A stretch of 64,000 nucleotides of DNA from Verrucomicrobiota bacterium (GTDB taxonomy: Bacteria > Verrucomicrobiota > Verrucomicrobiia > Opitutales > UBA953): the NCBI GenBank assembly GCA_015061905.1, contig SUVQ01000010.1, positions 54,284 to 118,283 on the forward strand, written 5' to 3'. Below the pieces are notes generated by a model. It was not told where the DNA came from. It saw only the letters and a program-made list of their open reading frames with translations, and made no database searches. Of the stretch, positions 1 to 64,000 are shown piece by piece (the stretch's first letter is position 1; every line of letters starts with the position of its first letter). Both the position numbers and the translations under genes were made by a program.

Positions 1-1290
1 CATGAAGTCCATGCCGCCGTGGCCGCCGACTTTTTTCGCCTTTTCTCCGATTTCGAGAATGAGCGGGTGTGTGTACTTCTGAACAAGAGCCTGCTGTGCA
101 TCTGCCGGGAGGAATCCGTGAGCATTCAGGTTTTCGTGATTCGGAATGCCTTCAATCGTGGAGGTTTTGCCCTGAACAGCATAACCTTGAACCGGATATT
201 TGTTCGCGAAACCGCTCGTTCCCGTAACCTGATATTTGCGGTTGTAGGGCTGCGGCGTCATGACGTTGTGCTGAATTTCGATGACTTTTCCCTTAGCGGT
301 GCGCATGAGCGTCGTCGTGTGGTCGCCGTTTTCAAAGTGAGTGCACTTTTCGCCGGTGGCTTTTTCAACGAGCTGCTTTCCGATGAAGGAATCCGTGTCC
401 ATCGCAACGAGCGTGGTAAGGCGGTCGCCGCGGTGAATATCCATCACTTGGCAGACGGGACCGAGACCGTGCGTCGCATAGACGTCGCCGCGGTGCGTGC
501 GGTTGTATTCCAAACGCCAGCCGAGCTTGTCGTTCGCGTCTTTTTTCCAGTAATAATTCCAGAAGTCGCTCAAGTCGTGAATGTAAGCGCCTTCGCCGCG
601 GATAACTTCGCCGAACACGCCTTTTTTCGCCATATTGAGCGTATTGAGTTCGAAGAAGTCGTAGCAGCAGTTTTCGAGCTGAATGCAATGCTTGCGCGTG
701 CGTTCCGACATATTGATGAGATCCCAGCAGTCCTGAACACTCATCGCGGACGGGACTTCAATCGCGGCGTGCTTGCCTTTTTCCATTGCGTAGAGAGCGA
801 CGGGAACGTGGTGATTCCAGTCGGTTGCGATGTAAACCAAGTCGATATCATCGCGTTCGCAAAGAGCTTTGTAGCCGTCTTCCCCGCTGTAAATTGCCGC
901 CGGTTTGAGACCTTTATTGATAAGCTTATTGTTCTGCCCTTCCGCGCGTTCCTTCACATAATCGCAAAGCGCAACGATTTCGACATTCAAGCCGACATCT
1001 TTCATCGCCAAAAAGCGATCGACCGCACCGGGACCGCGCATCCCCAAGCCGACGAAACCGACACGGACGACGTCCAATTTCGGGGTCTTGAGTTCAAGCA
1101 CGTGCTTTTGTCCGGCGGGACGGGCGGGAACGGTCGTGCGAATAACGCCGTCTTTACCGCGAGTCCACTTCGCTTTGAACTGCCAGTTCATGCCGTCATC
1201 GCTCTTCGTCGATTCCGGAGTCGGTTCGGGGCAACCGGTCAGAGTAAACACGACACAGGCTGCTGCCAGCAAGTAGTTTAGTTTTTTCAT
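1..1290 (-). CDS. GH109-type alpha-N-acetylgalactosaminidase, lipoprotein (3' end beyond window)
   Basis: Reads from ATG at 1290 to the window edge, in frame, so about 430 residues are present and the C-terminus is missing. The N-terminus MKKLNYLLAAACVVF..LTGC is a lipoprotein signal with Cys at about residue 21, so the enzyme should be membrane anchored on the outer or periplasmic side. After a linker comes a Rossmann fold of the Gfo/Idh/MocA type (RVGFVGLGMRGPGAV, about residues 72-86) and a region with CDYVKERA, YIATDWNHHVP and the THGLGPV segment typical of GH109. GH109 enzymes use NAD in a redox-assisted hydrolysis and remove terminal alpha-GalNAc, for example from blood group A glycans and mucin. 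The sugar kinase just upstream in the same direction fits use of the released amino sugar. Family call is firm; substrate is inference. Confidence 0.85.
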   Translation of the reverse strand, partial: MKKLNYLLAAACVVFTLTGCPEPTPESTKSDDGMNWQFKAKWTRGKDGVIRTTVPARPAGQKHVLELKTPKLDVVRVGFVGLGMRGPGAVDRFLAMKDVGLNVEIVALCDYVKERAEGQNNKLINKGLKPAAIYSGEDGYKALCERDDIDLVYIATDWNHHVPVALYAMEKGKHAAIEVPSAMSVQDCWDLINMSERTRKHCIQLENCCYDFFELNTLNMAKKGVFGEVIRGEGAYIHDLSDFWNYYWKKDANDKLGWRLEYNRTHRGDVYATHGLGPVCQVMDIHRGDRLTTLVAMDTDSFIGKQLVEKATGEKCTHFENGDHTTTLMRTAKGKVIEIQHNVMTPQPYNRKYQVTGTSGFANKYPVQGYAVQGKTSTIEGIPNHENLNAHGFLPADAQQALVQKYTHPLILEIGEKAKKVGGHGGMDFM

Positions 1291-1390
1291 TAGTTATATC
1301 TCGTTTTTTGGGAAAGTAAAAGTTTCTGAAATAGTCTCAAAAATTCAAACGGACGTAAAGGTGAAAGATGAAATATGAAAGATTAGAGAA

Positions 1391-1445
1391 GCGGGAGCCC
1401 GGGAACGCGGTAATTCCCGAGCCTCCGGTCTCCCGTTCCCGGTTT
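1391..1445. repeat. Inverted pair of CGGGAACG words between sugar kinase and GH109
   Basis: CGGGAACG at 1400-1407 faces CGTTCCCG at 1434-1441, inside a 55-base segment of further GGGA/TCCC complementarity that can fold in several ways. A T-run follows on the + side only, so for the genes on the - strand it could be a hairpin between the kinase and the GH109 gene rather than a strong terminator. It might protect or attenuate a shared transcript. Confidence 0.5.
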
Positions 1446-1467
1446 TTCCTTAAATTTCAAGCCCTCT

Positions 1468-2583
1468 TTACAGCGAAGCGACGAGCGCGTTCATCGCGTC
1501 CATCTGCTCTTCGATGCATTCGACGAGGCGGAATTGCGTGCGGCAACGATCGAGGTTGTGATCCGGACGCGCTGTTTTGAAATACAGGTCGCCGTCGAGG
1601 TAGTCCGTAAGGAAGCGCATTCCGCATTCGAGCGTGAGAAGTTTGCCCGAGAACGGGAGCAATTCGCGTTCCTTTGCGTTGAGGAAATCTCCGGCGGAGC
1701 TGATGTAGCCTTTCGCGAGTGCTTCGAAATATTGGAACTGCATGGCGACTTTCGACAAATCGACTTCGTCTTCCTTAGCGGGAGAAGTCGAAGTGCGCAC
1801 CATGTCGCCGAAGTCATAAAGCGCGGAGCCCGGCATCGACGTATCGAGGTCGATAACGCAAATTCCTTCAAGCGTATAGTCGTCGATGAGCACGTTGTTC
1901 AGCTTCGTGTCCTGGTGCGCGATGCGTTCGGGAATTTCGCCCTTCGCCATCGCGTCGAGCACAACGGAACAATCCGCTTCGCGCGCGAGAATGAAGTCGA
2001 TTTCCTTTTTGACGCCGGCGGCGCGGTTTTTCACGTCGGCAGCGAGCGATTTTTGGAAAGTTTCAAAGCGTTTGCGCGTGTTGTGGAAATCCGGAATGGT
2101 TTCGACGAGGCGTCCGTCCGGAATATCGACGAGAAGTTTTTGGAAGTTCCCGAAAGCGCGAGCCGCCTGAAACGCCTGTTCCGTCGTTTCGATCACGTCG
2201 TAGCCGCGGGCGCGTTCGATGAAAATGTAGCAACGCCAAACATTGCCTTCCGCGTCGACATACCAATCCTTGCCGGTTTTCGTCGGGATGAGCGTGAGCG
2301 TGCGGCGAGAAGCGTCGGGCGCGTTGTTAGCTTTGAGTTTGTCAAACGAATGACGGCAAATACGCGCGACGTTTTCCATCAATCCTTCCGGATTTTTGAA
2401 AATGTAGGAATTAACGCGCTGAATGATGTAGCGCACGCGGCAGGCGCCTTGGTCGAATACGGCGCAAAACGTGTCGTTAATGTGCCCGCTTCCATACGGG
2501 AACGCGTCGACGAAGTCGCCGTAAATGGCAAATTGCGCCGCGATGGCGGGAACGTTGTATTTGGTGTCTTTTGCTGAGGACAT
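1468..2583 (-). CDS. APH-fold sugar kinase, N-acetylhexosamine 1-kinase-like
   Basis: 371 residues, starting at ATG 2583. The aminoglycoside-phosphotransferase fold is shown by the catalytic loop around residue 223 (IAHQDTKLNNVLID; Asp as base, Asn as metal ligand) and the following VIDLDT metal-binding motif. The early YGSGHINDTF resembles the nucleotide loop of the family. This family includes NahK, which phosphorylates GalNAc and GlcNAc at C1 for salvage. The GH109 alpha-N-acetylgalactosaminidase directly downstream (178 bases, same strand) supports an N-acetylhexosamine substrate. It could also be a choline or homoserine kinase-type relative, but length and motifs fit NahK-like proteins better. 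Cytoplasmic. Substrate is inferred from context. Confidence 0.8.
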   Translation of the reverse strand: MSSAKDTKYNVPAIAAQFAIYGDFVDAFPYGSGHINDTFCAVFDQGACRVRYIIQRVNSYIFKNPEGLMENVARICRHSFDKLKANNAPDASRRTLTLIPTKTGKDWYVDAEGNVWRCYIFIERARGYDVIETTEQAFQAARAFGNFQKLLVDIPDGRLVETIPDFHNTRKRFETFQKSLAADVKNRAAGVKKEIDFILAREADCSVVLDAMAKGEIPERIAHQDTKLNNVLIDDYTLEGICVIDLDTSMPGSALYDFGDMVRTSTSPAKEDEVDLSKVAMQFQYFEALAKGYISSAGDFLNAKERELLPFSGKLLTLECGMRFLTDYLDGDLYFKTARPDHNLDRCRTQFRLVECIEEQMDAMNALVASL

Positions 2584-2707
2584 AAGTTCGTGGGTAGTTT
2601 TGTTAAAAAAATAAAATTTTGCGCGGAGCGAAATCGCGTTTCCGCGTGTCTCAGAGTCTCGTCTTTCCCGCCTGTAAGCGCAAGAAAGAATTACGTTCCC
2701 GCGACGG

Positions 2708-3445
2708 TTAGCGGCGAATCAGCCACTCGATTTTTGCTTTTTCGTCGAAAACCGTTACCGAAAATTCGTCATCGTCAAGGCATTGCGCCTTGAGTTCTTT
2801 TTCGGTCAGTTTGTCCGCCTTTTTCTTTCCCTGATTGTAAAGAGCAACGAGGCGTTTTAACTCTGCAGAGGTTTTCTTAGATATTTTCGAAACGTTAAAA
2901 ATCTTTTTTGTAAAACCTTCCCGCTCGGATTTCATTGCATCTTTGCCCTGCCGCTGAATTTCGATGGCTTCGGACGGGGAAAACTTTAGCTTTTTCAGCG
3001 TTTCCGCCTTCATGTTGTAAAGTAAAACGTTTTCGCCGCCCACAATTTCAAACACGGCGGAAAGTTGCTTAAAATCAGCTTTCCCGCCGAATGCCGTTCC
3101 CGCGTCGCCCGAATCCGGAAAATATTTTTTTGTAAACGCGTCAAAATCCTCCGGCGGCATCAAAACAAAAATAAGTCCTCCGGCGGCTTGTTTTTTGTCG
3201 CCTGTTTCAATCGGAACAACGGCGGCATCGGCGTCAGACATCACCGTTCCCGTTTCCGCAATATCCAGGACGAACGTATTTACCCGCGTCCCTTTAAAAT
3301 CCTTGATTTTCGCCGCCCAAACGTCAGCGCAGGAAACTTCCGTTTCCGCTTTTTTCCCGGCTTTCTTTTTAGGCGCGGCAACAACGGAAACCGGAACGAG
3401 CAGGGAAAACAGCAGAACAAAACCGAGCGTGAGTATTTTCTTCAT
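2708..3445 (-). CDS. Secreted Lys-rich protein of unknown function
   Basis: 245 residues from ATG 3445. The N-terminus (MKKILTLGFVLLFSLLVPVSVVAA) is a clear Sec signal with likely cleavage after VAA, followed by a basic stretch (PKKKAGKKAE). The mature part is about 220 residues, mixed alpha/beta by eye, with no catalytic motif that can be named, and is rich in Lys, Phe and Asp. A single Cys lies near residue 39 and another near 222. It sits 37 bases downstream of the antiporter on the same strand and may be co-transcribed with it. No family recognised. Confidence 0.7.
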   Translation of the reverse strand: MKKILTLGFVLLFSLLVPVSVVAAPKKKAGKKAETEVSCADVWAAKIKDFKGTRVNTFVLDIAETGTVMSDADAAVVPIETGDKKQAAGGLIFVLMPPEDFDAFTKKYFPDSGDAGTAFGGKADFKQLSAVFEIVGGENVLLYNMKAETLKKLKFSPSEAIEIQRQGKDAMKSEREGFTKKIFNVSKISKKTSAELKRLVALYNQGKKKADKLTEKELKAQCLDDDEFSVTVFDEKAKIEWLIRR

Positions 3446-3482
3446 GATAAAAAAGAGATTTCAGCTTTCGTTTTTTATTTTT

Positions 3483-4877
3483 TTATTGAGAAGAACTCAG
3501 AAAAATCCACGCGCAGAAAACCAGCACGGGAACGAGAATCGGCAAGCTGTAGCGGAAAATATAGCCGAAAAAGGACGGCATTTTCACGTTTTCCGCCTCG
3601 GCGATGGATTTCACCATAAAGTTCGGCCCGTTCCCGATGTATGTCAGCGCGCCGAAGAACACCGAGCCGAGCGAAATCGCAACCACCAGAAGACTGTATG
3701 CCGGATTTTCCGTATCGGTCATCCAGTCCACCTGTTCGGTTGCCGGGATTTCGGCGGGAACGATACTGCGAATCAAATCAAAGAAATTCGCATACGTGGG
3801 CGTATTGTCCAAAAAGCCCGAAAGCGCGCCCGAGGCAAAATAATAATGCGCCGGGCTTTTGAGCATTTCCGCAATTTGCGGACCGTGCGTTGTCAGGTAA
3901 GCCAACGCCGGAACCATCGTCAGAAAGATGCCGACAAACAAATAACCCACTTCCCGGATCGGCTCGAAGTTGAAATTATTTTCGCGGTGAATTTCCGGAT
4001 GCGTCTGGAAATAGGAAGCGACCGCCGCCAAAACCATTACGATTTCGCGCACGAAATACGTCTCCAAAACTTCGCGCACGGGAACGGAAACCTGTCCGGG
4101 CAAAAATACCGCGCAAACCACCACCAGCAAATACCCGATATTTTTAACTCCGCGCACGGAAAGCGCCATCCGCTCCGCCGATTTTTCCGCAAGACGGGAA
4201 CGCGCTCCCGCCTTCCGGAAACTCCGCAAATCTATCAGGTAAAATACGGCAAGCAACGCCCCGACGACAAAAGCCCACGGCAAATTTGCCTGTTCGAAAA
4301 TCCAGAAAAACTCCACACCTCGCAAATATCCGATGTAAAGCGGCGGATCGCCAATCGGCGTAAGCGCACCTCCGACATTGGAGACGATAAAAATGAAAAA
4401 AACAATGTGAAACGCCGAAAGCCGGTATTTGTTAATCTGCATCCACGGGCGAATAAGCACCATCGACGCTCCCGTCGTTCCGATAAGATTCGCCAACACC
4501 GCCCCGATTAACAGAAAAAGCACATTCGTTTTCGGCGTCGCTTCTCCCGGCAGGCGAATTGCGATCCCGCCCGAAATTACAAACAGCGAACCGACCAACG
4601 CGATGAACGAAATGTATTCTTTCAGCGAATGCCAAACATCGCCCGCGCCGCCCGGCACCAACGGAATGTAATACGCAGCGACGGCAAGCCCGAGAACCAG
4701 CGAAACCGCCGGATAAAAACGCTCCCAGCGGTGCTTCCACTTTTTGCCCGTCAAAGGCATTACCGCTATCAACGCCAACAACAGGACGAACGGAATCGAC
4801 ATCCAAAGCTGAACCGCTTCGTATTTTCCGCCCGACGCAATCAATGCAGGAAATTCCAAGATTCCTAAACTGCTCAT
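3483..4877 (-). CDS. NhaD-like sodium:proton antiporter family membrane protein
   Basis: 464 residues with about 11-12 hydrophobic segments spread over the whole length, so an inner-membrane carrier. The sequence around residues 138-188 (ANLIGTTGASMVLIRP, SNVGGALTPIGDPPLYIG) matches the conserved core of the ion transporter superfamily that includes NhaD, ArsB and CitM-type carriers; the TPIGDPP element is typical of putative Na+/H+ antiporters of this group. A second, inverted-repeat-like core is visible near residues 345-360 (SGFLDNTPTYANFF). Likely role: exchange of Na+ for H+ and pH or salt homeostasis. Ion specificity cannot be decided from sequence alone. Confidence 0.82.
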   Translation of the reverse strand: MSSLGILEFPALIASGGKYEAVQLWMSIPFVLLLALIAVMPLTGKKWKHRWERFYPAVSLVLGLAVAAYYIPLVPGGAGDVWHSLKEYISFIALVGSLFVISGGIAIRLPGEATPKTNVLFLLIGAVLANLIGTTGASMVLIRPWMQINKYRLSAFHIVFFIFIVSNVGGALTPIGDPPLYIGYLRGVEFFWIFEQANLPWAFVVGALLAVFYLIDLRSFRKAGARSRLAEKSAERMALSVRGVKNIGYLLVVVCAVFLPGQVSVPVREVLETYFVREIVMVLAAVASYFQTHPEIHRENNFNFEPIREVGYLFVGIFLTMVPALAYLTTHGPQIAEMLKSPAHYYFASGALSGFLDNTPTYANFFDLIRSIVPAEIPATEQVDWMTDTENPAYSLLVVAISLGSVFFGALTYIGNGPNFMVKSIAEAENVKMPSFFGYIFRYSLPILVPVLVFCAWIFLSSSQ

Positions 4878-4972
4878 AGATTATTCAATTCCAAAAAAAA
4901 ACTTTTACCGCGACAAGCGAAATCGCCACAAAAGTTTTGTCGACAACACTCGGCGTTGCGTTCTTTTTCTTG

Positions 4973-5024
4973 AAAAAAAAGCGTTCCCGCACAAGACGGC
5001 TTTTGCCGAGCGGGAACGCTTTTC
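4973..5024 (-). terminator. Intrinsic terminator of rpoD made from an inverted CGGGAACG pair
   Basis: GCGTTCCCGC at 4981-4990 pairs with GCGGGAACGC at 5010-5019 around a 19-base loop that itself has complementarity (AGACGGC/GCCGAG region). On the - strand it is followed by eight T (the A-run 4973-4980). It lies 35 bases beyond the rpoD stop codon. Textbook hairpin plus U-tract, both arms being complete copies of the iterated word. Confidence 0.9.
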
Positions 5025-5058
5025 TACGAAAACGGGAATGACTTCTCCGGGAAAGAAA

Positions 5059-7425: not shown

Positions 7426-7457
7426 AATTAGAATTCTTAAAAATGTTTTCTTTTTTT

Positions 7458-9383: not shown

Positions 9384-9426
9384 GGCAGATGAAAGCGCGG
9401 AATCTTGCCAAACATTTGCCCTGCCC

Positions 9427-9607
9427 GCAAATTGAAATTTGTTGCCCGGAACGAGCAACAAATGCTGAAAAGCTGAAGAGCCTAGAAGTTTGGTTGTTTC
9501 GCTCGCGAAACAAGGAAAAGAATCTTTTTTATTTTATAAAAGTAAAACGCTCGGCGAAGTCGATTAAACTTTTCAGTTCCTCAGCTTTTAAACATTTGCC
9601 GAAGCGT
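9427..9607 (+). repeat. Dispersed intergenic repeat, copy 1 (about 180 bp)
   Basis: Lies between the divergent dnaG and beta-CASP genes. It is clearly similar, by direct reading, to the reverse complement of 59811-60011: shared runs include AACAAGGAAAAGAATC, TTTATAAAAGT, TCGGCGAAG.CGATTAAAC and ACATTTGCCGAAGCG. It begins with GCAAATTGAAATTTG, a near-palindrome also present at about 22371 and 33768. No reading frame is conserved between copies, so a non-coding element. Confidence 0.75.
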
Positions 9608-9632
9608 TGATGATTCCGTAAGTTTTCCCGTT

Positions 9633-11574: not shown

Positions 11575-11988
11575 ATGACAAAAGTCCCCTTCTTCAGAAA
11601 AGCATTCACCCTGATTGAAACTCTTATCGCTGCGGTTCTCATCGGAATCGTCGTCGCTGTCGCGGTGTGGATTTTCCCGCAATATCAGGCGTCTTCCGCA
11701 TTGACGGAAGCGATTAACGACGGAGCTCGTATCGGCAACGCCGCGCAGGCGCACTTCGCGGAAACCTTGGAACGAACGGTTACCGTGCAATACAATCCTA
11801 CGAACGGAGTCATTACGGGACCGGACACATTCCGACTTCAGGACGGCAACAAAATAACGCCGGGCTACCTCATTCCCGGGAACGAATTGAAAATTTCTTT
11901 CGACAACAAAGAGTCGTTTACGCTGAAGCACCCCAAGGGCGGCGTTTATACGTTCAGCGATAAAGGCGAACTTTCCCACTCCGAATAA
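11575..11988 (+). CDS. Type IV pilin-like / pseudopilin protein
   Basis: 137 residues. The N-terminus MTKVPFFRKAFTLIETLIAAVLIGIVVAV is a class III prepilin signal: basic leader, then FTLIE with Glu at +5, then a long hydrophobic helix. Ala rather than Gly precedes the cleavage site, which prepilin peptidases tolerate less well. The globular part is short (about 95 residues) with ALTEAINDGARIGNAAQAHF following the helix, as in minor pilins or T2SS/verrucomicrobial secreted pseudopilins. It could be part of a type IV pilus, which is relevant because the window carries a candidate DNA uptake word, but no pilus assembly genes are next to it. Followed by a terminator at 12009-12037. Confidence 0.8.
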   Translation: MTKVPFFRKAFTLIETLIAAVLIGIVVAVAVWIFPQYQASSALTEAINDGARIGNAAQAHFAETLERTVTVQYNPTNGVITGPDTFRLQDGNKITPGYLIPGNELKISFDNKESFTLKHPKGGVYTFSDKGELSHSE

Positions 11989-18928: not shown

Positions 18929-18980
18929 AAAAAAAAAGCGTTCCCGCGTGGAAAAATCCTTGCGGGAACGCACTTTTTTT
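18929..18980. terminator. Bidirectional terminator built from an inverted CGGGAACG pair
   Basis: GCGTTCCCGC (18938-18947) pairs with GCGGGAACGC (18962-18971) around a 14-base loop; A-run on the left and T-run on the right serve both the Rrf2 gene (+) and secDF (-), which converge here. Confidence 0.9.
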
Positions 18981-23030: not shown

Positions 23031-23032
23031 TT

Positions 23033-33728: not shown

Positions 33729-33840
33729 GACGCGCAACTCTAATTGCGTTCCCGCGTTCCCGCAAATTGAAATTTGCCGAACACGGCGCGAGAAACGTCC
33801 TTTTCGCTTATTTCCGCTCGCTCGCGCGGACGCGCAAAGC

Positions 33841-37603: not shown

Positions 37604-37645
37604 AAAGCGTTCCCGCTGGGAAATCCCGACGGGAACGTCTTTCTT
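37604..37645 (-). terminator. Terminator of the PEP-CTERM gene from an inverted CGGGAACG pair
   Basis: GCGTTCCCG (37608-37616) faces CGGGAACG (37630-37637) with inner GGGAAATCCC complementarity; the - strand reading ends in a T-rich run. 17 bases past the stop at 37662. Confidence 0.8.
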
Positions 37646-42412: not shown

Positions 42413-42464
42413 TAAAAAAAAAACGTTCCCGAATTTTTTCTTCGCGGGAACGCATTTTTTTTAG
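42413..42464. terminator. Bidirectional terminator from an inverted CGGGAACG pair (dinG / infC)
   Basis: AACGTTCCCG (42422-42431) pairs with CGGGAACGC (42444-42452), loop about 12 bases, A-run left and T-run right, serving both converging genes. Confidence 0.9.
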
Positions 42465-45952: not shown

Positions 45953-46390
45953 TTAGCGGCGGGAACGCCAGCTCAAGGCGCGATGGAGCACGGCACGCAT
46001 CGCGCCGTCGGATTCGCGCACGTAAACTTCGACCACGTCTAAGCGAGTCGATTTCGGGCGTTCCCGCAATCCGTGCAAATACGCATCGGCGGCACGGCGC
46101 AAGGCGGCTCTTTTTCGGGCATCCACAGCGAAAACCGCGCCGCGCGTGTCATTTTCCGAGCGTGTTTTTACTTCGACAAAAACGAGGGTTTCGGAGTCTG
46201 TCGCGACGATGTCGATTTCGTCCTTTCCCGCGCGGAAATTGCGGCAGAGAATTTGCATGCCGCATTGTTTTTTCAGAAAATCGGCGGCAAATTTTTCTCC
46301 CGCATCCCCGCGTTCCCGCCGCCATGTTTTCTTTTTCGCGGGAACGTCTTTTTTGAAGATTTTTTGAAAAATGCGCTCAAAAAAACTCAC
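45953..46390 (-). CDS. yraN: YraN / UPF0102 family putative nuclease
   Basis: 145 residues from GTG 46390; the GTG shares bases with the TGA stop of the propeller gene (GTGA), so translation is coupled. PD-(D/E)xK nuclease-like core: RGDAGEKFAADFLKKQCGMQILCRNFRAGKDEIDIVATDSETLVFVEVKTR, with the E, D and ExK residues in place. Members are common in bacteria and may act in DNA recombination or repair; the role is not established. The open frame extends further upstream, but inside the previous gene. Confidence 0.88.
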   Translation of the reverse strand: MSFFERIFQKIFKKDVPAKKKTWRRERGDAGEKFAADFLKKQCGMQILCRNFRAGKDEIDIVATDSETLVFVEVKTRSENDTRGAVFAVDARKRAALRRAADAYLHGLRERPKSTRLDVVEVYVRESDGAMRAVLHRALSWRSRR

Positions 46391-54560: not shown

Positions 54561-55997
54561 TCACGCAGGGATTGCACGCTCAAGGGCAAAAGCACGCGAG
54601 CCTTTGAGCATGACGTTCCCGCGAAACGCGGCGATAAATTCGCGAAGCGCGTCAATTTCCGCAAACACGTGCACGCGTTCCCGCGGGAAACCCGCCGCGA
54701 TTGCGCCCTGCCCGATTTGCGCAGCGTTCCCGCCGAAAAGCGCAAGAAAATCCGTCTCCGCACAAAGCGGCAATTTTTCGCCGACTTCGCGATGAAGAGT
54801 TTCCGAAGTTTCCCCCAGTTCTCCCATGCCGCCGAGCACGAAAAGGCGCGGCATTTCCTGCGTTCCCGCAAAACGCTTCGCAAAAGCATCCGCCGAATCC
54901 AGCATCGATGCCGGAGACGCATTGTAGCAATCGACAAAAATTTTTCCGCCGCACGCGCGTTCCCGCACTTCGCCGCGATTCGCAGACGGTTTCCACGCGT
55001 CGAGCGCCGCCTGAATTTTTTCCGGCGAAACGAATTCGCTCGCGGCTTGAATCGCCAAAGCCGCGTTTTCAGCCAAGCCGCGCGAAACATTTCGCACGGT
55101 AAAAACACCTTCCTTTTCGTGCGTCGCCTGTATTTTTAAATAAAATACATTATTTCCCGCATCCAGAATTTCGCAAGCGACGCTATCCGCAAAATAAGCG
55201 ATTCCGAATTCATCGCTTTGCTTCCATGATTCTACAAGCGTCGCTTCTTCCGCATTGCGGGAAAGCACATCGGCAACTGCCGCGCGAATCTTCCGGAAAC
55301 TTTCGTATTGCAACAAATCCGCATTGAAAATCACGCGCCCGTCGTGAACATCCGCCGCGAGCGAGGCTTTTTCCCGCGCGATGTTTTCCATTGAGCCCAA
55401 GCCTTCGAGGTGCGCCGGCTTGACATTGGTAACCAACGCGACATCCGGAAAAATCATTTGCGCGGAAACGCCGAGTTCGCCGGGAACGCTCATGCCCGCT
55501 TCAACCACAGCAAAGCGGTGGACTTCCGGATTTATTTTCAAAAGCGTAAGCGGCACGCCGAGCGTGTTGTTCAAATTTTTCTCCGTAGCCAAAGTCGGTG
55601 CTTCCTGCGACAAAATCAGCGCGAGTAAATCCTTCGTCGAAGTTTTCCCGACGCTTCCCGTAACGCCGAAAACCGTTTTCCCGACGCGGAAATTTTCGAT
55701 GCGATGCGCCGCCGCGAGTTTCTGCAGAGCCGCGACCGTGTCGGGAACGACAATTTGCGGAAGCGCGACTTCGGGAACGAAACGAGAAACAAGCGCACCC
55801 GCCGCGCCGCGTTCCCGCGCCGTTTCGAGAAAATCGTGCCCGTCGCGATTTGCGGTTTTGATGGCGATAAAAATTTCACCGGGCGAAACTTTTCGCGTAT
55901 CAATTGCCGCGCCCGCGATTTTCCCGGGAACGTTCCCGCCGCGCCATTTCGCGCCGAGCGTTTTTTCGACAAATGCGCCGTTTAAAACATTTTCCAT
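54561..55997 (-). CDS. murF: UDP-MurNAc-tripeptide:D-Ala-D-Ala ligase MurF
   Basis: 478 residues. Mur ligase order: N-terminal UDP-binding domain (AIDTRKVSPGEIFIAIKTANRDGHDFL), ATP loop GVTGSVGKTSTKDLL (about residue 113), ATEKNLNNTLGVPLTLL, VVEAGMSVPGELG, TNVKPAHLEGLGSMENIAREKAS with the carbamylated-Lys type segment, and C-terminal VDCYNASPASMLDSADAF with LGGMGELGE. The DCYNASP and LGxMxELG elements are specific to MurF. Last cytoplasmic amino-acid addition in peptidoglycan precursor synthesis. No other mur genes are in the window. Confidence 0.96.
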   Translation of the reverse strand: MENVLNGAFVEKTLGAKWRGGNVPGKIAGAAIDTRKVSPGEIFIAIKTANRDGHDFLETARERGAAGALVSRFVPEVALPQIVVPDTVAALQKLAAAHRIENFRVGKTVFGVTGSVGKTSTKDLLALILSQEAPTLATEKNLNNTLGVPLTLLKINPEVHRFAVVEAGMSVPGELGVSAQMIFPDVALVTNVKPAHLEGLGSMENIAREKASLAADVHDGRVIFNADLLQYESFRKIRAAVADVLSRNAEEATLVESWKQSDEFGIAYFADSVACEILDAGNNVFYLKIQATHEKEGVFTVRNVSRGLAENAALAIQAASEFVSPEKIQAALDAWKPSANRGEVRERACGGKIFVDCYNASPASMLDSADAFAKRFAGTQEMPRLFVLGGMGELGETSETLHREVGEKLPLCAETDFLALFGGNAAQIGQGAIAAGFPRERVHVFAEIDALREFIAAFRGNVMLKGSRAFALERAIPA

Positions 55998-56082
55998 GCG
56001 CTAAAATTTAGAATCGCCGCAAGTTTTTTTACAGAAGAAAAATCGAATTGGAAAGCTTTGTGCTTCGTGGTTTCTTCTTTTT

Positions 56083-56874: not shown

Positions 56875-56954
56875 CCGCCTGCGCGGGAACGTATTTTTCC
56901 CGGAAAATTTTAGAGGAAACCGAAGAAAAGTCTCTCACCCGAAAGTTAAGTATT

Positions 56955-57758: not shown

Positions 57759-57777
57759 AAAAAAAATCTCCGTTTTA

Positions 57778-58608
57778 TCAAATTTCTCGGGAACGGAAAA
57801 ACCACATTCCGACAAAAACAAGCGCAGCGATCCAAATCACGCCGTAGCCCAAGGCACTCCAAGTTGCGCCGACCGACAAGCCGTCGGGCACGAGCACGAG
57901 TGCTTCCCCGACGTTAAAAAGCTGAAGATTCGGAATAAATTTCGTCGCCGCCTGTGCGAGCGTTTTTATCCAAATCTCCGATTTTCCCTCCGAGACGAAA
58001 TCGGAAAGCACGTATTGAAGTTGCCCGATAAGCAGCGCGACAAACGAGACGACAACCGCGTAAAGATACGTCTGCGCAAAACTTGATACCGCAATCGTCA
58101 TCGCCGCCACGATTCCGAGGCGAACCCATTGAAACGCCGCAAAAACCGCGAGCCCGCCAAAATTCAAAACCGGCATAGGCAAGCCGCGAGTTGCGGCAAT
58201 TTCCGCCACCGTTCCCGCGCGCCATGCCAAAACTGCCGCCAAAACGCCGCACATCAGCACGACAAACACGCCGAGCAAAAGCCACACGCCCAAAAATTTT
58301 CCGAACAAAAATTCACCTCTGCGCACCGGTTTCGCAAGCATCGTAAGCGCCGTGCGGTTTTCTATTTCCGTGAAAAAAAGCTGCACGGACGTTACGACCG
58401 CCAAAACGGAACCGAAGAGGAAAATTCCGCCGAAACCGAAGTCGGCAATGAATTTGAGCTCGGAATCGCCGAAATCAAAATGCGTCAACGAAAGCGACAC
58501 GCACATCAGCCCGCCGCCGAGCAAAACCAAAAAGCTGAAAAATTTCTGCCGCGCCGCCTCCGTAAACGTATTGCGGGCAATCCAAAAGATTTTTTTCAAA
58601 AAACTCAC
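57778..58608 (-). CDS. ABC-2-type transporter permease
   Basis: 276 residues from GTG 58608, preceded by AGGA. Six hydrophobic segments (about 22-42, 58-80, 105-135, 148-168, 176-200, 245-270). Early segment FWIARNTFTEAARQKFFSFLVLLGG and EIENRTALTMLAKPVRRGEFLFGKFLGVW are typical of ABC-2/NosY-like permeases. 14 bases after the ATPase gene and probably co-translated with it. Exporter for an unknown substrate. Confidence 0.88.
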   Translation of the reverse strand: MSFLKKIFWIARNTFTEAARQKFFSFLVLLGGGLMCVSLSLTHFDFGDSELKFIADFGFGGIFLFGSVLAVVTSVQLFFTEIENRTALTMLAKPVRRGEFLFGKFLGVWLLLGVFVVLMCGVLAAVLAWRAGTVAEIAATRGLPMPVLNFGGLAVFAAFQWVRLGIVAAMTIAVSSFAQTYLYAVVVSFVALLIGQLQYVLSDFVSEGKSEIWIKTLAQAATKFIPNLQLFNVGEALVLVPDGLSVGATWSALGYGVIWIAALVFVGMWFFRSREI

Positions 58609-58622
58609 CTTCCTGTCCTTTT

Positions 58623-59492
58623 CTATTTTTTAAGATTTTCGAGAAAATATTTTTCAAGCGAAATACGCGGCTGAGACACGCGCTCAATGCGGATTCCGTA
58701 ACGTTCTCGAAGTTCTGCACAAAGCTCCGGCGTCAGCGGAGTGCCGTTTCCGATGACCGCGAGTTGCTTGTCGCGTTGCGTCAGCACTTCATCGAGCGTT
58801 CCCGCCACGGAGAGTTTTCCCCGATTCATGATGGCAACGCGGTCGCAAAGTTCTTCGATTTGCCCGAGCAAATGCGAGCACAGCACGACGGTTTTTCCCC
58901 GGGATTTCATTGTGCGAATCGCGTCTCCGATTTCCGCCGAGCCGATAGGGTCTATTCCTGCCGTAGGTTCATCCAAAATCACCAAATCCGGATTGTGCAC
59001 TACGGCTTGTGCGACGCCGATGCGCTGGAGCATGCCCTTGGAGTAAGTTTTCACGCGGCGCGCGGCGGCAGCGGTCATTCCGGTCAGCGCAAGCGCGTCT
59101 TCCGTGGCTTCCTCGATTTTTTGAGCGGGAACGCCGCTCATGCGGGCGTAGTATTTCACCAGCTCGCGTCCGGTAAGATAACCGTAGAAATACGGTGCCT
59201 CCGGCAAAAAACCTATGCGGGAACGCACGGAAATATCCGAGCTTTTTTTACCGAAAATACGGCATTCGCCGGAAGTCGGGCGAAGAAGCCCGAGAATGAT
59301 TTTCAGCGTCGTGCTTTTTCCGGAGCCATTCGGTCCGAGCAGTCCGAAAATCTCGCCCGGATTCACAAAAAAAGAGACGTTGTCGACGGCGCGCAATTTT
59401 ACGCCGCGCATTCCGACGCGAAAATCCTTGGTCAGATTTTCAATTTCTATTGCCGAAATCTTGTTTCCTTTTTCTGAATCCGCGTTTTTCAT
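58623..59492 (-). CDS. ABC transporter ATPase (ABC-2/NosF-like exporter)
   Basis: 289 residues. Walker A GPNGSGKST (about residue 53), Q-loop GFLPEAPYFYGYLTGRE, signature YSKGMLQR (Ser-Lys-Gly variant common in ABC-2 exporters), Walker B DLVILDEPTAGIDP and switch His CSHLLGQ. A C-terminal extension of about 60 residues follows (TQRDKQLAVIGNG..). Partner of the permease downstream. Six bases after acyP. Confidence 0.94.
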   Translation of the reverse strand: MKNADSEKGNKISAIEIENLTKDFRVGMRGVKLRAVDNVSFFVNPGEIFGLLGPNGSGKSTTLKIILGLLRPTSGECRIFGKKSSDISVRSRIGFLPEAPYFYGYLTGRELVKYYARMSGVPAQKIEEATEDALALTGMTAAAARRVKTYSKGMLQRIGVAQAVVHNPDLVILDEPTAGIDPIGSAEIGDAIRTMKSRGKTVVLCSHLLGQIEELCDRVAIMNRGKLSVAGTLDEVLTQRDKQLAVIGNGTPLTPELCAELRERYGIRIERVSQPRISLEKYFLENLKK

Positions 59493-59498
59493 CGTCGC

Positions 59499-59783
59499 TT
59501 ATCCCGCAATGGAAAATCCGTAAACGGAAGCGTTGCCCGTTCCCGTTTTTTTCTCCGTCTCGCGGATGAAAGATTTCATTTCGTCCTCGACGGCGGAAAC
59601 GAAGGCGAGCACATCGCGTTCCCGACCTTCGGCGTGCAAATGCACGCGCCCGTCGGCGAGATTTCGCACCGTTCCCGAAACGTCAAACTCGCGGGCGATT
59701 TTAAGCGTCTGCCAGCGAAATCCTACGCCCTGCACGCGTCCGCCGAACCACGCGTCGGCAAAAAAAACGGCTTTCGTTTCCAT
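59499..59783 (-). CDS. acyP: Acylphosphatase
   Basis: 94 residues, full length. Catalytic Arg in [11 protein letters not shown] (about residue 22) and Asn in [15 protein letters not shown] (about residue 40). Hydrolyses acyl phosphates such as acetyl phosphate or carbamoyl phosphate. First gene of a four-gene operon with the ABC transporter and TPR-like protein; a functional link is not known. Confidence 0.95.
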
Positions 59784-59810
59784 ATTTTTCCAATAAAACC
59801 AAGCTTTCCG

Positions 59811-60011
59811 CGCTTCGGCAAATGTTTAAAGTTTAAAAGCTGAGAAGCTGAAAAGTTTAATCGGCTTCGCCGAGAGTTTCACTTTTATAAAACAAAAAAA
59901 AGATTCTTTTCCTTGTTCCGCTTGCGAAACAGCTAAACTTCTAAGCTCCTAAGCTTTCTCAGATCTTGTTGCTCGTTGCTCGCTAAACGAGCGACAAATT
60001 TCTATTTGCTT
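59811..60011 (-). repeat. Dispersed intergenic repeat, copy 2 (about 200 bp)
   Basis: Inverted copy of 9427-9607 relative to the + strand; it begins CGCTTCGGCAAATGTTTAAA and contains GCTGAGAAGCTGAAAAG and ATTCTTTTCCTTGTT. Lies between divergent acyP and the M3 peptidase. A fragment (AGTTTAAAAGCCGAGAAGCCGGAAAG) is also found after dinG at about 42388. Non-coding. Confidence 0.75.
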
Positions 60012-60046
60012 GTTGTTTGGTCTTTTTTATAGAGTTTTCGCTAATT

Positions 60047-62302
60047 ATGAATATGAAAAACAGCCTTATTCTTCTTTCCGGACTGGCAATCATGCCCTTT
60101 TTCGCCTCTTGCGGAAACGTCGACGTTCCCGCCGAAAAACCGGCGCAAACCGCCGTCGGCGTTCCCGAGGAACTCGATTACGAAAAACACCCTTTCCTGA
60201 ATCCGTCGCTGAACATCGCGTGGTCGCGCCTCACGCCGGATAAAATCGTCCCCGACGTCAGAATCGCGCTCAAACGCGCACGCGCAAATATCGAAAAAAT
60301 CGCCGCGCTCCCGACTGACGTTCCCGGCGCACTGACCTACGAAAACACCGTCGGCGCACTTTGGGAAAACGCGGCGGAATTTGACTTCGTTTGGGGAAAA
60401 GTAACACACCTCGAAAGCGTCGCCATGTCCGACGAGTTCCGCAAAGCCTACGCGGAAATTTTGCCGGAGGTTTCTGAATACGAAACGAAAACCGGTCTCG
60501 ACGAACGCCTTTGGTCCGTCATCAAAGCTTATTCCGAAACTGAAGACGCCAAAAAACTTTCCCCGCAAAAAGCACGCCACTTGAAAAAAGTTTGCGACGG
60601 ATTCCGCGACGGCGGCGCAGACCTTCCCGCCGCACAAAAACGCGAGCTCACGGAAATTTCCAAGGAACTGACCACCGTCACGCAAAAATTCTCGCAAAAC
60701 GTGCTCGATGCCACGAACGCGTGGCGCAAGCTCGTTACGGACGAATCCCTGCTCGCAGGCTTGCCGGAATCCGATAAAGCCGCCGCCCTCGCCGCCGCGA
60801 AAAAAGCCGGCTTGGCAACAGACGAAAATCCGGCGTGGCTTTTCACGCTCCAGAGCATTTCCTACGGTCCCGCGCTGAAATATCTCGAAAACGAAGCACT
60901 TCGGAAAGAAATTTGGAACGCAACGGACAAACTTTGCATCGGCGGCAAGTTTGACAATTCTCAAAACATGCTCCGCATTCTTGAATTACGCCAGCGCGAA
61001 GCCGAAATCCTCGGCGAAAAGAATTTTTCCGACCTCGTCTTAAAACGCCGCATGGCGAAAAACGGCGACACCGCGATGGAGTTTATCAACAAACTCTACA
61101 TGCAAACAAAAATCGCGTTCGACCGCGAATACGACGAGTTGAAAGCCTTCCGCAAAGCCAACGATCCCGCCTACGACGGCGGAGATTTTAAGCCTTGGGA
61201 TTTGGCGTTTTGGACGGAAAAAATGCGCCGCACCAACTACGCCTTCAACGCAGATGCCGTAAAACCCTATTTCTCCGAAGACAACGTCATGAAAGGCATG
61301 TTCGACTTGCACGAACGCCTTTACAATATCGATATCGTCGAAGAAAAATCCGTTTACATCGAGCCCGGCTCCGGAAAAACCGCTCCGGCGGGAACGTTTG
61401 AAGTCTGGCATCCGCAGGTCAAATTCTATTCCCTTTACGATAAAGCGACGGGCAAAAAACTCGGCATTTTCTACACGGACTGGTTCCCGCGCGAATCCAA
61501 GCGCAACGGAGCATGGATGAATCCCTGCTACGCCGGAGACCGTTCCCGCGGCGAAATCAATTACGGGCTCGTTTGCGGCAACATGACCGCGCCCATCGGC
61601 AACGCGCCCGCGCTTTTCACTCACTACGACGTTACGACAATTTATCACGAGTTCGGACACCTGATGCACCACCTGCTCGGGAACGCGGAAGTTCCCGCGC
61701 TCAACGGCACAAGCGTCGCGTGGGACTTTGTCGAACTGCCCTCCCAACTCAACGAAAACTGGTGCTGGGAACCGGAAGTGCTCGCATCCTTCGCTAAACA
61801 CTACGAAACCGGCGAACCGTTCCCGCCCGAACTCGTTGAAAAAATGACGCGCGCACGCAATTTCCAAAGTGCTTATCAGCAAATGCGCCAACTCAGCTTC
61901 GCGTATGCCGATATGTTCCTCCACATGAACGCAAAGGACCTGCTCAAAGGCGGAAAAAAACTCAACGACATCGGCATCGAAATTACCGTGCCGCTCACGT
62001 GGAAAATGTCGCCGACGCCGAACACCAACCTGAATCGCTTTACGCACCTCTTCCGTAGCCCGGTCGCCTACGCCTCCGGATACTATTCCTACAAATGGGC
62101 GGAAGCACTCGAAGCCGATGCTTTTTACTCCGTTTTCCGCAACGCCGACGGCTCGCTCAACTACGACAAAGGCATGGATTTTCGTAAAAAAATCCTCGAA
62201 AAAGGCGACACGGAAGACGCAGACAAACTCTTCCGCGACTTCGTCGGGCGCGATCCCGACTGGAACGCCATCAACGTTCTTCACGGCATTTCGGACAAGT
62301 AA
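60047..62302 (+). CDS. M3-family zinc oligopeptidase, lipoprotein
   Basis: 751 residues from ATG 60047. Lipobox at MPFFASCGN (Cys about residue 22), so membrane anchored outside the cytoplasm, which differs from the mostly cytosolic OpdA/Dcp. Zinc site HEFGHLMHH (about residue 546) with downstream Glu in the EL region; GIFYTDWFPRESKRNGAWMNPC, and YASGYYSYKWAEALEADAF near the end, as in Dcp and oligopeptidase A. Breaks down short peptides. An upstream in-frame start at 60017 lies partly outside the natural signal. Single gene with its own hairpin after it. Confidence 0.93.
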   Translation: MNMKNSLILLSGLAIMPFFASCGNVDVPAEKPAQTAVGVPEELDYEKHPFLNPSLNIAWSRLTPDKIVPDVRIALKRARANIEKIAALPTDVPGALTYENTVGALWENAAEFDFVWGKVTHLESVAMSDEFRKAYAEILPEVSEYETKTGLDERLWSVIKAYSETEDAKKLSPQKARHLKKVCDGFRDGGADLPAAQKRELTEISKELTTVTQKFSQNVLDATNAWRKLVTDESLLAGLPESDKAAALAAAKKAGLATDENPAWLFTLQSISYGPALKYLENEALRKEIWNATDKLCIGGKFDNSQNMLRILELRQREAEILGEKNFSDLVLKRRMAKNGDTAMEFINKLYMQTKIAFDREYDELKAFRKANDPAYDGGDFKPWDLAFWTEKMRRTNYAFNADAVKPYFSEDNVMKGMFDLHERLYNIDIVEEKSVYIEPGSGKTAPAGTFEVWHPQVKFYSLYDKATGKKLGIFYTDWFPRESKRNGAWMNPCYAGDRSRGEINYGLVCGNMTAPIGNAPALFTHYDVTTIYHEFGHLMHHLLGNAEVPALNGTSVAWDFVELPSQLNENWCWEPEVLASFAKHYETGEPFPPELVEKMTRARNFQSAYQQMRQLSFAYADMFLHMNAKDLLKGGKKLNDIGIEITVPLTWKMSPTPNTNLNRFTHLFRSPVAYASGYYSYKWAEALEADAFYSVFRNADGSLNYDKGMDFRKKILEKGDTEDADKLFRDFVGRDPDWNAINVLHGISDK

Positions 62303-62315
62303 AATCCGGGAATTA

Positions 62316-62369
62316 CGGGAGGCGCGGCGCGAATGTCGCGTCTCCCGCAGTTCATTTCCGTTTTTTTTC
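62316..62369 (+). terminator. Hairpin and T-run after the M3 peptidase
   Basis: CGGGAG (62316-62321) pairs with CTCCCG (62342-62347) and GCGCGA with TCGCG inside it; the T-run (62361-62368) comes after a 13-base spacer, so termination efficiency is uncertain. Confidence 0.55.
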
Positions 62370-62422
62370 AAAAACGAATTTTAAAAACAAAATATCTTTC
62401 CGTATCGCTTTATTAATCGATT

Positions 62423-63346
62423 ATGAAACACACTATGAAAACATTCATTCCTGCAATCGCGGCATTCGCCATCGCTCCGTTTATCTTCGCAGCAGAAGAC
62501 ACCGTGCCGTCTTTGACCGCCGCTCCGGCTGATGCCGAAGTTTCAGCGAAAAAAGTCGAAATCACACCCGAACAGCGTCAGCTTTTCCTGAAAGGTCTGG
62601 GCTGGCTCGTAGGGCAACAAAGCGGGCTCGTCCAAGAGCTTCGCATTTCCAAGGAAGACGTTCCCGCCATCGCGGAAGGATTCCGCCTCGCACTCATCGG
62701 CGAAGGTAAAGACATCCCGACGCAAGTAATGGCAAATAACGACGCCTACGGAAAATTTATCGAAGAAATGCAGGCTCACGCCGCCGCCCAAGTTGAAGCC
62801 GAAATGAAGGCCGCCGCCGAAGGAAATAAAAAAATCGGCGCAGAATTTATCGCCAAAACTAAAGCGGACGACAAAGCCTACGCCGCGCTCCCGTCCGGCG
62901 TTTTGATGAAGACAACAAAAGCCGGCAACGCCGACAAAAAACCGACCGATAAAGACACCGTTTCCGTGCGCTACACGGGGAAACTCGTCGACGGAACGAT
63001 TTTCGATAGCTCCGCGCGCGACGAAAACGGCGTTCCCGTTCAATTCGTCGCCGGAGAAGGAGAAACTGTCGACCTCCCGCTCGGTCAGCTCATTAAGGCT
63101 TGGGCAGAAGCGATTCCTCTTCTCGGCGTCGGCGGACAATGCACGATTATCGTTCCCGCAGATCAGGCTTACGGCGACAACGCCGTCGGAATTATTCCGC
63201 CCGGGTCCACGCTCATTTTTGACATTGAGCTCGACGGCATCGCCGCTCCCGAAACAACGGACAGCGCAGACGCCGATGAAAACGCTGAAGAAAACGATGC
63301 TCCCGTCGCTGAAGAAATCGATCTCGTCGAAATCGACGAAGACTAA
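62423..63346 (+). CDS. FKBP-type peptidyl-prolyl isomerase, exported
   Basis: 307 residues from ATG 62423 (an ATG four codons later is an option). Signal peptide (TFIPAIAAFAIAPFIFAAED). N-terminal dimerisation-like helices (QRQLFLKGLGWLVGQQSGL, residues about 50-150) as in FkpA/Mip, then the FKBP domain at about residues 160-270: DTVSVRYTGKLVDGTIFDSS, GQLIKAWAEAIPLLGVGG, VPADQAYGDN, IPPGSTLIFDIEL. An acidic tail of about 35 residues ends the protein. Folding of periplasmic proteins. Terminator of the CGGGAACG type follows. Confidence 0.95.
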   Translation: MKHTMKTFIPAIAAFAIAPFIFAAEDTVPSLTAAPADAEVSAKKVEITPEQRQLFLKGLGWLVGQQSGLVQELRISKEDVPAIAEGFRLALIGEGKDIPTQVMANNDAYGKFIEEMQAHAAAQVEAEMKAAAEGNKKIGAEFIAKTKADDKAYAALPSGVLMKTTKAGNADKKPTDKDTVSVRYTGKLVDGTIFDSSARDENGVPVQFVAGEGETVDLPLGQLIKAWAEAIPLLGVGGQCTIIVPADQAYGDNAVGIIPPGSTLIFDIELDGIAAPETTDSADADENAEENDAPVAEEIDLVEIDED

Positions 63347-63363
63347 GCCCTTCTAAACCTAAA

Positions 63364-63406
63364 CAAAAAAGCGTTCCCGTGAGATAGTCACGGGAACGCT
63401 TTTTTT
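63364..63406. terminator. Perfect terminator from an inverted CGGGAACG pair
   Basis: AGCGTTCCCGTGA (63369-63381) pairs without mismatch with TCACGGGAACGCT (63387-63399) around GATAG, with six A on the left and seven T on the right. 17 bases past the FKBP stop. The clearest example in the window. Confidence 0.95.
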
Positions 63407-63469
63407 ATGCGCTGTCTTCTTCTACTTGCGCTTCTGATGTCGGAATACTGTCAATAATTGGTATCACTC

Positions 63470-63955
63470 CTATTGCAACGATACCCACGCCGATTCCGAA
63501 GCCGCCGCCGATAGCAAGCCGTAGGTGAACCACGTGCCGTCTTTTTGAATCGCAAGCGGACGCGTCGCCGTCGGTTGCGACGGATCCCAGGTAACGAACC
63601 AAAGCGCCGGATGACCGGAACGCGTGCAATCCACGCAGGCAATTTGCAAATAACCGCGATAGATGTAGCGATGGTGAAGCGTTACCGTTCCCGCGACCGT
63701 TACTTTTTTGAAGTAGCGCCGACCTTGCGAGTCGTAGCCGCATTCAACCGTTGTATCCGTTTCTTCATTACGGAAATGCACAGGACGATTCGCGCCGTTG
63801 TAGGTAATCGCCCACGTTCCCGTGGAGGTTTGAATCAGCGTAGCGTTCCCGAGTGTTGCGGAAACAAGTTCCAAACACGAGGGGCGAACCCAAGCATTAT
63901 TTTTCACTTTTTTGCAACAATAGTCCCAATAGTTTTTCCTGAGCATGAACGACAT
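63470..63955 (-). pseudogene. RHS/YD-repeat protein fragment
   Basis: Frame from ATG 63955 gives 161 residues. The part from about residue 45 (WAITYNGANRPVHFRNEE, CGYDSQGRRYFKKVTV, HHRYIYRGYLQIA) and the following VTWDPSQPTATRPLAIQKDGTWFTYG is the conserved core of RHS/YD-repeat proteins. After WFTYG the usual DLTKNV segment is missing and the frame ends; an overlapping frame carries a Gly/Ile-rich tail (GGGFGIGVGIVAIG) down to 63405. Upstream stops exist too. So a truncated or frameshifted remnant of a large polymorphic-toxin-type protein. Confidence 0.75.
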
Positions 63956-64000
63956 AATCTTCCTCAAGATAATATGGATGATTCTTTAGTATCCACTTGT

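What the first reader, a model, noticed from the sequence alone, without database searches (positions are those of the whole stretch)
1..64000. Hyper-iterated 8-base word CGGGAACG, candidate DNA uptake sequence or HIP1-like element
About 215-220 copies of core GGGAACG/CGTTCCC in 64 kb by hand count (expected near 8), both orientations, genes and gaps alike, almost always with a leading C. Density of roughly one per 300 bases exceeds the known DUS/USS systems (about one per kb). Non-palindromic, so unlike HIP1. No such element is known to me for Verrucomicrobiota. A pseudopilin gene is at 11575, but no competence genes are in the window. Function is inference: uptake signal, methylation/recognition site or recombination signal.
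Basis: partly seen in the sequence, partly recalled or inferred. Interest (0 to 1): 0.95.

Follow-up and report, generated by a model that had tools for sequence, protein, structure and literature searches.

The report
Gut bacteria's likely DNA uptake word
The eight-letter DNA word CGGGAACG is repeated every 260 to 370 bases through six of eight genomes of one genus of gut-associated bacteria (Opitutales, near Candidatus Spyradosoma) and is at least fifteen times rarer in the 87 other genera counted; it is likely an uptake tag by which these cells would recognise and take in DNA of their own kind.

Summary
CGGGAACG occurs 215 times in the window (order-3 Markov expectation 19) and 6,550 times in the 2.08 Mb genome (3,233 forward, 3,317 reverse; the word read backwards: 85). 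It is nearly as dense in genes as between them and exceeds a synonymous-codon shuffle tenfold, so codon use does not explain it. Of 317 genomes counted in the order, only one genus is rich in it: six of eight members at 2,700-3,850 per Mb; the other two keep a remnant that looks decayed. At matching gene positions the word is intact 1.4-2.5 times as often as comparable 8-mers in three close relatives, while its flanks are slightly less conserved than average. Pairs in one inverted order form terminator-like hairpins, mostly near gene ends. These are published traits of Neisseria uptake sequences. ComEC, DprA, pilus-type ATPases and pilins occur in all eight. The word is not palindromic, and four methyltransferase families show no enzyme shared by the six word-rich genomes, against a HIP1-like account. 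Best reading: a DNA uptake signal, apparently the first outside Pseudomonadota. Uptake is untested and no receptor was identified.

The parts
1..64000 (.). 215 copies of CGGGAACG (95 on +, 120 on -), first at 217 (-), last at 63844 (-)
   Evidence: 181 wholly inside called genes and 34 outside, called genes covering 85.7% of the window
4982..5018 (.). inverted word pair CGTTCCCG..CGGGAACG flanked by an A-run and a T-run near a gene end: likely terminator hairpin
18939..18970 (.). inverted word pair between convergent gene ends: likely terminator hairpin
37608..37637 (.). inverted word pair near a gene end: possible hairpin, T-run weak
42424..42452 (.). inverted word pair between convergent gene ends, T-run follows: likely terminator hairpin
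46311..46346 (.). inverted word pair near a gene end, T-run follows: likely terminator hairpin
63372..63398 (.). inverted word pair AAAAAGCGTTCCCG..CGGGAACGCTTTTT between convergent gene ends: likely bidirectional terminator
55925..55938 (.). two words overlapping head to head (CGGGAACGTTCCCG) inside a called gene
33747..33762 (-). two words abutting in tandem (CGTTCCCGCGTTCCCG)
11575..11988 (+). 137-aa type IV pilin-like protein, full length only in this genus within the family; a possible, unproven receptor candidate
   Evidence: PF07963 N-terminus; relatives over nearly the whole length in 8 of 8 genus members (48-100% identity), elsewhere in the family weak or partial matches only, the best 31% over residues 3-105 in G010; acidic

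Best explanation
CGGGAACG is likely a DNA uptake signal: a short word scattered through the genome that a surface DNA-binding protein of the type IV pilus/competence machinery would prefer, so that the cells would take up mainly DNA of their own genus. Shown here: the word is genome-wide, strand-symmetric, restricted to one genus of those counted, more conserved at matching positions than comparable 8-mers, often paired in terminator-like hairpins, and reduced to a remnant in two sister species. Inferred: biased uptake followed by homologous recombination (molecular drive, perhaps with selection) keeps words in place and lets them accumulate to one per 260-370 bp; where that bias is lost the words would erode by point mutation, as G014 and G016 suggest. 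The receptor is not identified; by analogy with ComP and the proposed ComN it would be a minor pilin.
For: Genus restriction: six of eight genus members at 2,717-3,850 per Mb (sizes of relatives rounded by the tool); none of the 309 other genomes counted (71 of the same family, 238 of other families of the order) exceeds about 170 per Mb. Symmetry: 3,233/3,317. Nearly position-blind: 3.12 per kb in called genes, 3.31 outside, all six frame classes. Conservation in codon-aligned genes: intact in 496 of 589 sites in G013 (control 61%), 158 of 244 in G012 (33%), 81 of 120 in G015 (27%). Word identity 0.897 and 0.905 against 0.822 and 0.803 overall and 0.796 and 0.772 in the nearest 10 flanking bases (G012, G015); same direction in G013 and for G012 against G015. 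This is the pattern reported for Neisseria DUS (PMC2397512, passages). Terminators: pairs within 45 bp outside genes number 39 in the order CGTTCCCG..CGGGAACG against 9 in the opposite order, and 31 of the 39 have a called gene end nearby; 50 of 124 noncoding hairpin-plus-T sites hold the pair; DUS do the same (PMC3630211, passages). Remnant: in G014 and G016 intact words stand at 6.4 and 4.7 times the order-2 expectation, with one-letter variants in excess (550 against 352; 444 against 249; in G000 1,265 against 891 beside 1,344 intact); 19 of the 24 words of G014 in aligned genes lie on G000 word sites; a ComEC tree puts both beside word-rich G017. Machinery: ComEC, DprA, PilB/PilT-type ATPases and 7-11 pilin-like genes in all eight genus members.
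Against: No uptake data exist. ComEC is also in 65 of the 71 family members outside the genus, and G014 and G016 keep ComEC, DprA and the ATPases, so machinery does not discriminate. The ATPase cluster could belong to a secretion system: its PilB-type members fall below the curated cut-offs and the neighbouring gene matches GspF; only the PilT-type member passes its own. No receptor was found: all 22 pilin-like proteins measured, from five genomes (6 of the 7 in G000), are acidic (mature pI 4.2-5.3), unlike what one expects of a DNA binder, and the model of the small genus-specific pilin has no significant fold match. Words of G000 are intact in G014 and G016 less often than control 8-mers (19 of 180 against 18%; 5 of 81 against 14%), so many may have arisen after that split rather than been lost there; in G017 the excess is not significant alone (6 of 29 against 10%, P 0.11). 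A stretch with a Mu-type portal gene (L119) still holds 30 words in 20 kb, fewer than the average of 63 but far more than chance. Word position within genes shows no clear end bias. Orientation correlates weakly with GC skew in 10-kb bins (r 0.49; 0.37 after correcting for gene strand).
Confidence: 0.65

Rival explanations
1. HIP1-like element: an orphan DNA methyltransferase marks the word, and methylation-directed repair or selection for methylated sites makes it accumulate.
For: Density and sharpness resemble HIP1, at 300-2,700 per Mb in most cyanobacteria outside one group (PMC4390886). All eight genus members have at least one PF01555 methyltransferase.
Against: HIP elements are palindromes (PMC4390886 abstract); this word is not. 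In the four families searched no enzyme is shared by the six word-rich genomes: PF00145 has no match in G011 and G015, PF02086 none in G012 and G013, PF07669 none in G017, and the main PF01555 group has no counterpart in G012 and G013, whose single PF01555 proteins resemble it and each other only weakly. Two enzyme groups are shared with word-poor G014.
Confidence: 0.13
2. Chromosomal recognition site of another kind: a Chi-like recombination signal, a segregation (KOPS-like) signal or a nucleoid-protein site.
For: Genome-wide and dense; weak local correlation of orientation with GC skew (r 0.49).
Against: Chi and KOPS are polar along the replichore and much sparser (recalled); here the G-rich and C-rich strands carry 740 and 725 and the genome 3,233 and 3,317. 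Terminator pairing is not predicted.
Confidence: 0.12
3. The word began as a common intrinsic-terminator stem and spread by transcription-related use.
For: 50 of 124 noncoding hairpin-plus-T sites contain the pair.
Against: 1,071 of 1,344 copies in the sample lie inside called genes, in both orientations; a stem function does not explain lone coding copies.
Confidence: 0.04
4. Composition or codon-use artefact.
Against: Synonymous shuffle 113 against 1,075; order-2 Markov 59 against 1,344; other genera lack the excess. The dipeptide excess may itself follow from the word.
Confidence: 0.01

Closest known systems
DNA uptake sequence (DUS) dialects of Neisseriaceae (receptor ComP)
   Same: Asymmetric word, thousands of copies on both strands, inverted pairs in terminator-like hairpins, high conservation with less conserved flanks, clade-restricted; type IV pilus-type and ComEC genes present
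   Different: Unrelated word, 8 bases instead of 10-12; 3,146 per Mb against about 2,470 for the densest DUS seen (kingDUS, PMC3630211); nearly as dense in genes as outside; different phylum; no ComP counterpart identified; uptake untested
Uptake signal sequence (USS) of Pasteurellaceae (proposed receptor PpdA/ComN, PMC12616744)
   Same: Short asymmetric core, genome-wide, both strands, inside and outside genes
   Different: Unrelated word and phylum; about three times denser than the roughly one per kb of H. influenzae (recalled); no end-of-gene bias like that described for Pasteurellaceae (PMC2346458); receptor unknown
HIP1 and alternate HIPs of cyanobacteria
   Same: Sharp 8-mer at extreme density through genes and gaps; reduced in some relatives
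   Different: HIPs are palindromic and go with cognate methyltransferases; here the word is asymmetric and no shared methyltransferase was found in four families
Chi and KOPS
   Same: Short asymmetric over-represented words
   Different: Those are polar and much sparser (recalled); this word shows no overall replichore polarity

Membership tests
DUS/USS uptake sequences | Hyper-represented short word, both strands, genome-wide | tested here: met
   6,550 copies, 3,233/3,317
DUS/USS uptake sequences | Confined to a clade | tested here: met
   One genus of the 88 counted in the order; genomes outside the order were not counted
DUS/USS uptake sequences | Inverted pairs associated with transcription terminators | tested here: met
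   39 against 9 outside genes; 50 of 124 hairpin sites; 11 of 29 convergent gaps, 13 of 97 co-directional, 2 of 35 divergent
DUS/USS uptake sequences | Word more conserved than its surroundings, flanks in permissive sequence | tested here: met
   Four of four comparisons among word-rich species, not against word-poor G014; DUS pattern in PMC2397512
DUS/USS uptake sequences | Rare in recently acquired DNA | tested here: inconclusive
   4,491-bp gap in a low-GC stretch beside a glycosyltransferase gene; a stretch with a Mu-type portal gene has half density, not none
DUS/USS uptake sequences | Natural competence machinery present | tested here: met
   ComEC, DprA, PilB/PilT-type ATPases and pilin-like genes in 8 of 8 genus members; PilQ, ComEA and ComF not searched
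DUS/USS uptake sequences | Specific minor-pilin receptor | tested here: inconclusive
   Genus-restricted 137-aa pilin found, but acidic and present in the word-poor species too
DUS/USS uptake sequences | Preferential uptake or transformation of DNA bearing the word | not testable with these tools
   needs experiment
HIP1-like elements | Palindromic word | tested here: not met
   CGGGAACG differs from its reverse complement CGTTCCCG
HIP1-like elements | Cognate methyltransferase in the genomes that carry it | tested here: inconclusive
   No enzyme of PF00145, PF01555, PF02086 or PF07669 shared by all six; other families not searched and assemblies incomplete
Chi/KOPS-type signals | Orientation polar along the replichore | tested here: not met
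   740 against 725 by GC-skew sign in 46 bins of 10 kb; weak local correlation noted

The most novel reading that the evidence does not exclude
An independently evolved DNA self-recognition system in Verrucomicrobiota: the densest uptake word yet described, with a receptor unrelated to ComP or ComN, ancestral to the genus and lost within it, so that its gain, maintenance and decay can be followed across eight sister species.
Probability: 0.53. Interest if true: 0.92.

Novelty: new variant of a known kind. Interest (0 to 1): 0.84.

Why it matters
Genome-wide uptake words are known experimentally only from Neisseriaceae and Pasteurellaceae (recalled). The rows listed by my paper searches (20 of 683, 20 of 20, 1 of 1, 12 of 236, 12 of 134, 12 of 54) show no report for Verrucomicrobiota. 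A third, unrelated origin in a gut-associated Verrucomicrobiota genus, at higher density and with living word-poor relatives, would allow a direct test of whether such words spread as a selfish consequence of biased uptake or by selection for taking in kin DNA. It would show that much of this genus's sequence, perhaps even its protein make-up, is shaped by DNA exchange, and it offers a simple genomic marker of genetic exchange in uncultured bacteria.

Tried and rejected
A dialect switch in G016: its top words (GGGTTGGTGGTG and variants) proved to be clustered, often at contig ends, not evenly dispersed (whether they are intergenic was not tested). After a synonymous shuffle other words also rank above CGGGAACG in G016 (for example CGCCGGAA 85 against 26; CGGGAACG 51 against 19), none near the enrichment seen in word-rich species; not followed. 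A dialect switch in G014: CGGGAACG is still the top word (122 against 27). The window's small pilin as the gene lost in word-poor species: a direct search found it in G014 and G016 too, correcting the impression. Its predicted fold gave no significant match (best E 0.4, minor pilin PilW). Relatives of the portal protein in viral contigs: none. Searching papers for the word itself: the 20 of 762 listed look unrelated. tRNA, Rfam and tandem repeats in the window: nothing relevant. Position bias within genes as in Pasteurellaceae: no clear bias. My first comparison of methyltransferases read one strand only and was redone.

Caveats on counts: gene calls are home-made (open frames plus hexamer scores). 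Control 8-mers (6 G+C, two CpG) overlap and are not independent, and the P values use rounded fractions. Sites with a gap in either sequence were dropped. In one search each strand is scanned, so a bidirectional hairpin can count twice, pairs were recognised by their 7-base cores, and 4 of 195 sites of mixed coding status were left out. Conservation samples are partial: 37-490 kb per genome.

Full report
Observation. The window holds 215 CGGGAACG (95 forward, 120 reverse) and 219 of the 7-mer core, against 6-19 expected by Markov models of order 1-3. The genome that contains it (2,081,963 bp) holds 3,233 + 3,317, against 46 + 39 for the word read backwards: 3,146 per Mb, 89 times the expectation from base composition. 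The word is sharp: flanks show only a mild preference for G before (53% in the window) and C after (52%).

Where it sits. In a 425,468-bp sample of the genome (window plus 19 stretches) there are 1,344 copies, 3.12 per kb in called genes and 3.31 per kb outside. Within genes all six frame classes are used (VP 302, GT 287, GN 190, RE 124, FP 99, RS 69). Shuffling synonymous codons within genes gives 113 (sd 10) against 1,075, and the word is the top 8-mer by this measure. Dipeptides VP (1.65-fold) and GT (1.48-fold) are in excess, which may be an imprint of the word on the proteome; I did not compare this with relatives. Counts in 2-kb bins are close to Poisson (variance/mean 1.07) with a few gaps, the largest 4,491 bp in low-GC sequence of L121 next to a glycosyltransferase gene.

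Who has it. In 79 genomes of the family, only genus g1 is rich in the word: G000, G011, G012, G013, G015 and G017 hold 5,192-6,550 copies, G014 1,362 and G016 546. Of 273 genomes in 88 genera of the order, no other genus is enriched; together the two calls counted 317 genomes, 309 of them outside the genus. A SecDF search names the nearest relatives: three Opitutales bacteria from sheep, goat and water-deer rectum and Candidatus Spyradosoma merdigallinarum (85-99% identity). These four loci carry 2.1-4.2 words per kb; the other 76 loci of that scan carry at most 2 words each.

How it evolves. In codon-aligned genes, words of G000 are intact in 496 of 589 sites in G013 (control 61%), 158 of 244 in G012 (33%), 81 of 120 in G015 (27%), 5 of 15 in G011 (13%; P 0.04) and 6 of 29 in G017 (10%; P 0.11). 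Words are more alike than their genes and their nearest flanks less alike in all four comparisons among word-rich species, the pattern published for Neisseria DUS (PMC2397512, abstract and passages). In G014 and G016 only 19 of 180 and 5 of 81 are intact, below control, which fits loss there, late gain in the other lineage, or both. Yet 19 of the 24 words of G014 in aligned genes sit at G000 word sites, and one-letter variants are in excess there. A ComEC tree places G014 and G016 (81/82 support) beside word-rich G017 (95/94). The simplest reading is that the word is ancestral to the genus and has decayed in G014 and G016; separate gains in G017 and the other five are not excluded.

Terminator pairs. 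Neighbouring words within 45 bp favour the order CGTTCCCG..CGGGAACG: 60 against 24 in the opposite order overall, and 39 against 9 outside genes; 31 of those 39 lie near a called gene end. Many read AAAAAGCGTTCCCGC-loop-GCGGGAACGCTTTTT. Of 124 noncoding hairpin-plus-T sites, 50 contain such a pair; of intergenic gaps of 40-600 bp, 11 of 29 convergent, 13 of 97 co-directional and 2 of 35 divergent ones hold a pair. Inverted DUS pairs linked to terminators are described for the genomes with DUS dialects (PMC3630211, passages).

Machinery. ComEC is in 73 of 79 family genomes and all eight genus members. DprA is in 8 of 8. Strong PilB/PilT-type ATPase hits number three in each word-rich genome and four in G014 and G016; in G000 they lie with a gene that matches GspF/PilC, and only the PilT-type member passes its curated cut-off, so a secretion role for part of the cluster is not excluded. 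Pilin-like N-termini number 7 in each word-rich genome, 10 in G014 and 11 in G016. Of these, only the pilin at 11575 lies in the window. That 137-aa pilin is full length only in this genus within the family. It has 24 database relatives, of which 18 were aligned with it and share many invariant positions. It is acidic and also present in the word-poor species, so I hold it only as one candidate receptor among several.

Rivals. HIP1-like methylation: palindromy fails, and no methyltransferase of PF00145, PF01555, PF02086 or PF07669 is common to the six word-rich genomes; PF02384 and PF13659 were not searched and assemblies are 92-98% complete, so this is disfavoured, not excluded. Chi/KOPS: no overall polarity, with a weak local correlation to GC skew that I report against my reading. 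Composition and codon use are excluded.

Verdict. The word behaves like an uptake sequence in most of the indirect tests: symmetry, clade restriction, terminator pairing, conservation, machinery. Rarity in foreign DNA is inconclusive, since a stretch with a Mu-type portal gene has half density, and end-of-gene bias is not seen. Membership in the uptake-sequence class is likely but not established, since uptake and receptor, its defining features, are untested or unfound. I saw no earlier report in the rows listed; the single paper naming Spyradosoma (PMC8035907) was seen only in the listing. Papers read in part: PMC4390886 (abstract, section 2.2 and part 1 of section 3.4), PMC3630211 (passages), PMC12616744 (abstract and outline), PMC2346458 (first of three parts), PMC2397512 (abstract and passages).

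Noticed in passing
G016 stretches L014-L018 and L146-L155: Clusters of GGGTTGGTGGTG-type units, many at contig ends; a different repeat system in a species where CGGGAACG is down to a remnant.
   Followed up: partly
L119 (G000 contig 3, 1-20000): Stretch with a Mu-type portal gene, likely part of a prophage (most other proteins scanned had no family match), with word density half the genome average but far above chance.
   Followed up: partly
L121:10080-17355: Low-GC, gene-poor stretch with a glycosyltransferase and one word between 10081 and 17356, including a 4,491-bp gap; possibly acquired DNA.
   Followed up: partly
G014 contigs 36 and 66; G016 contigs 62 and 75: An extra PilB/GspE-type ATPase and an extra pilin cluster, seen only in the two word-poor species of the genus.
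   Followed up: no
called genes of the 425-kb G000 sample (window, L117-L135): Excess of dipeptides VP, GT and GN, possibly written into proteins by the word.
   Followed up: partly
G001 stretches L019-L021: About 50-110 copies of words such as GAACCGGG and GGATTGAA; from the ATTGAAAC ending I guess a CRISPR array.
   Followed up: no
G015 contig 37, G017 contig 18, G011 contig 164, G014 contig 59: Neighbouring PF02086 and PF01555 methyltransferase genes, which recall a DpnII-type pair; a 50%-identical PF01555 relative in G000.
   Followed up: partly
ComEC proteins of the genus (L132, L142, L155, L174): ComEC of G000 is only 31-36% identical to those of G014, G016 and G017 although aligned genes average 66-70% nucleotide identity; seemingly fast change in a DNA-uptake protein.
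   Followed up: no
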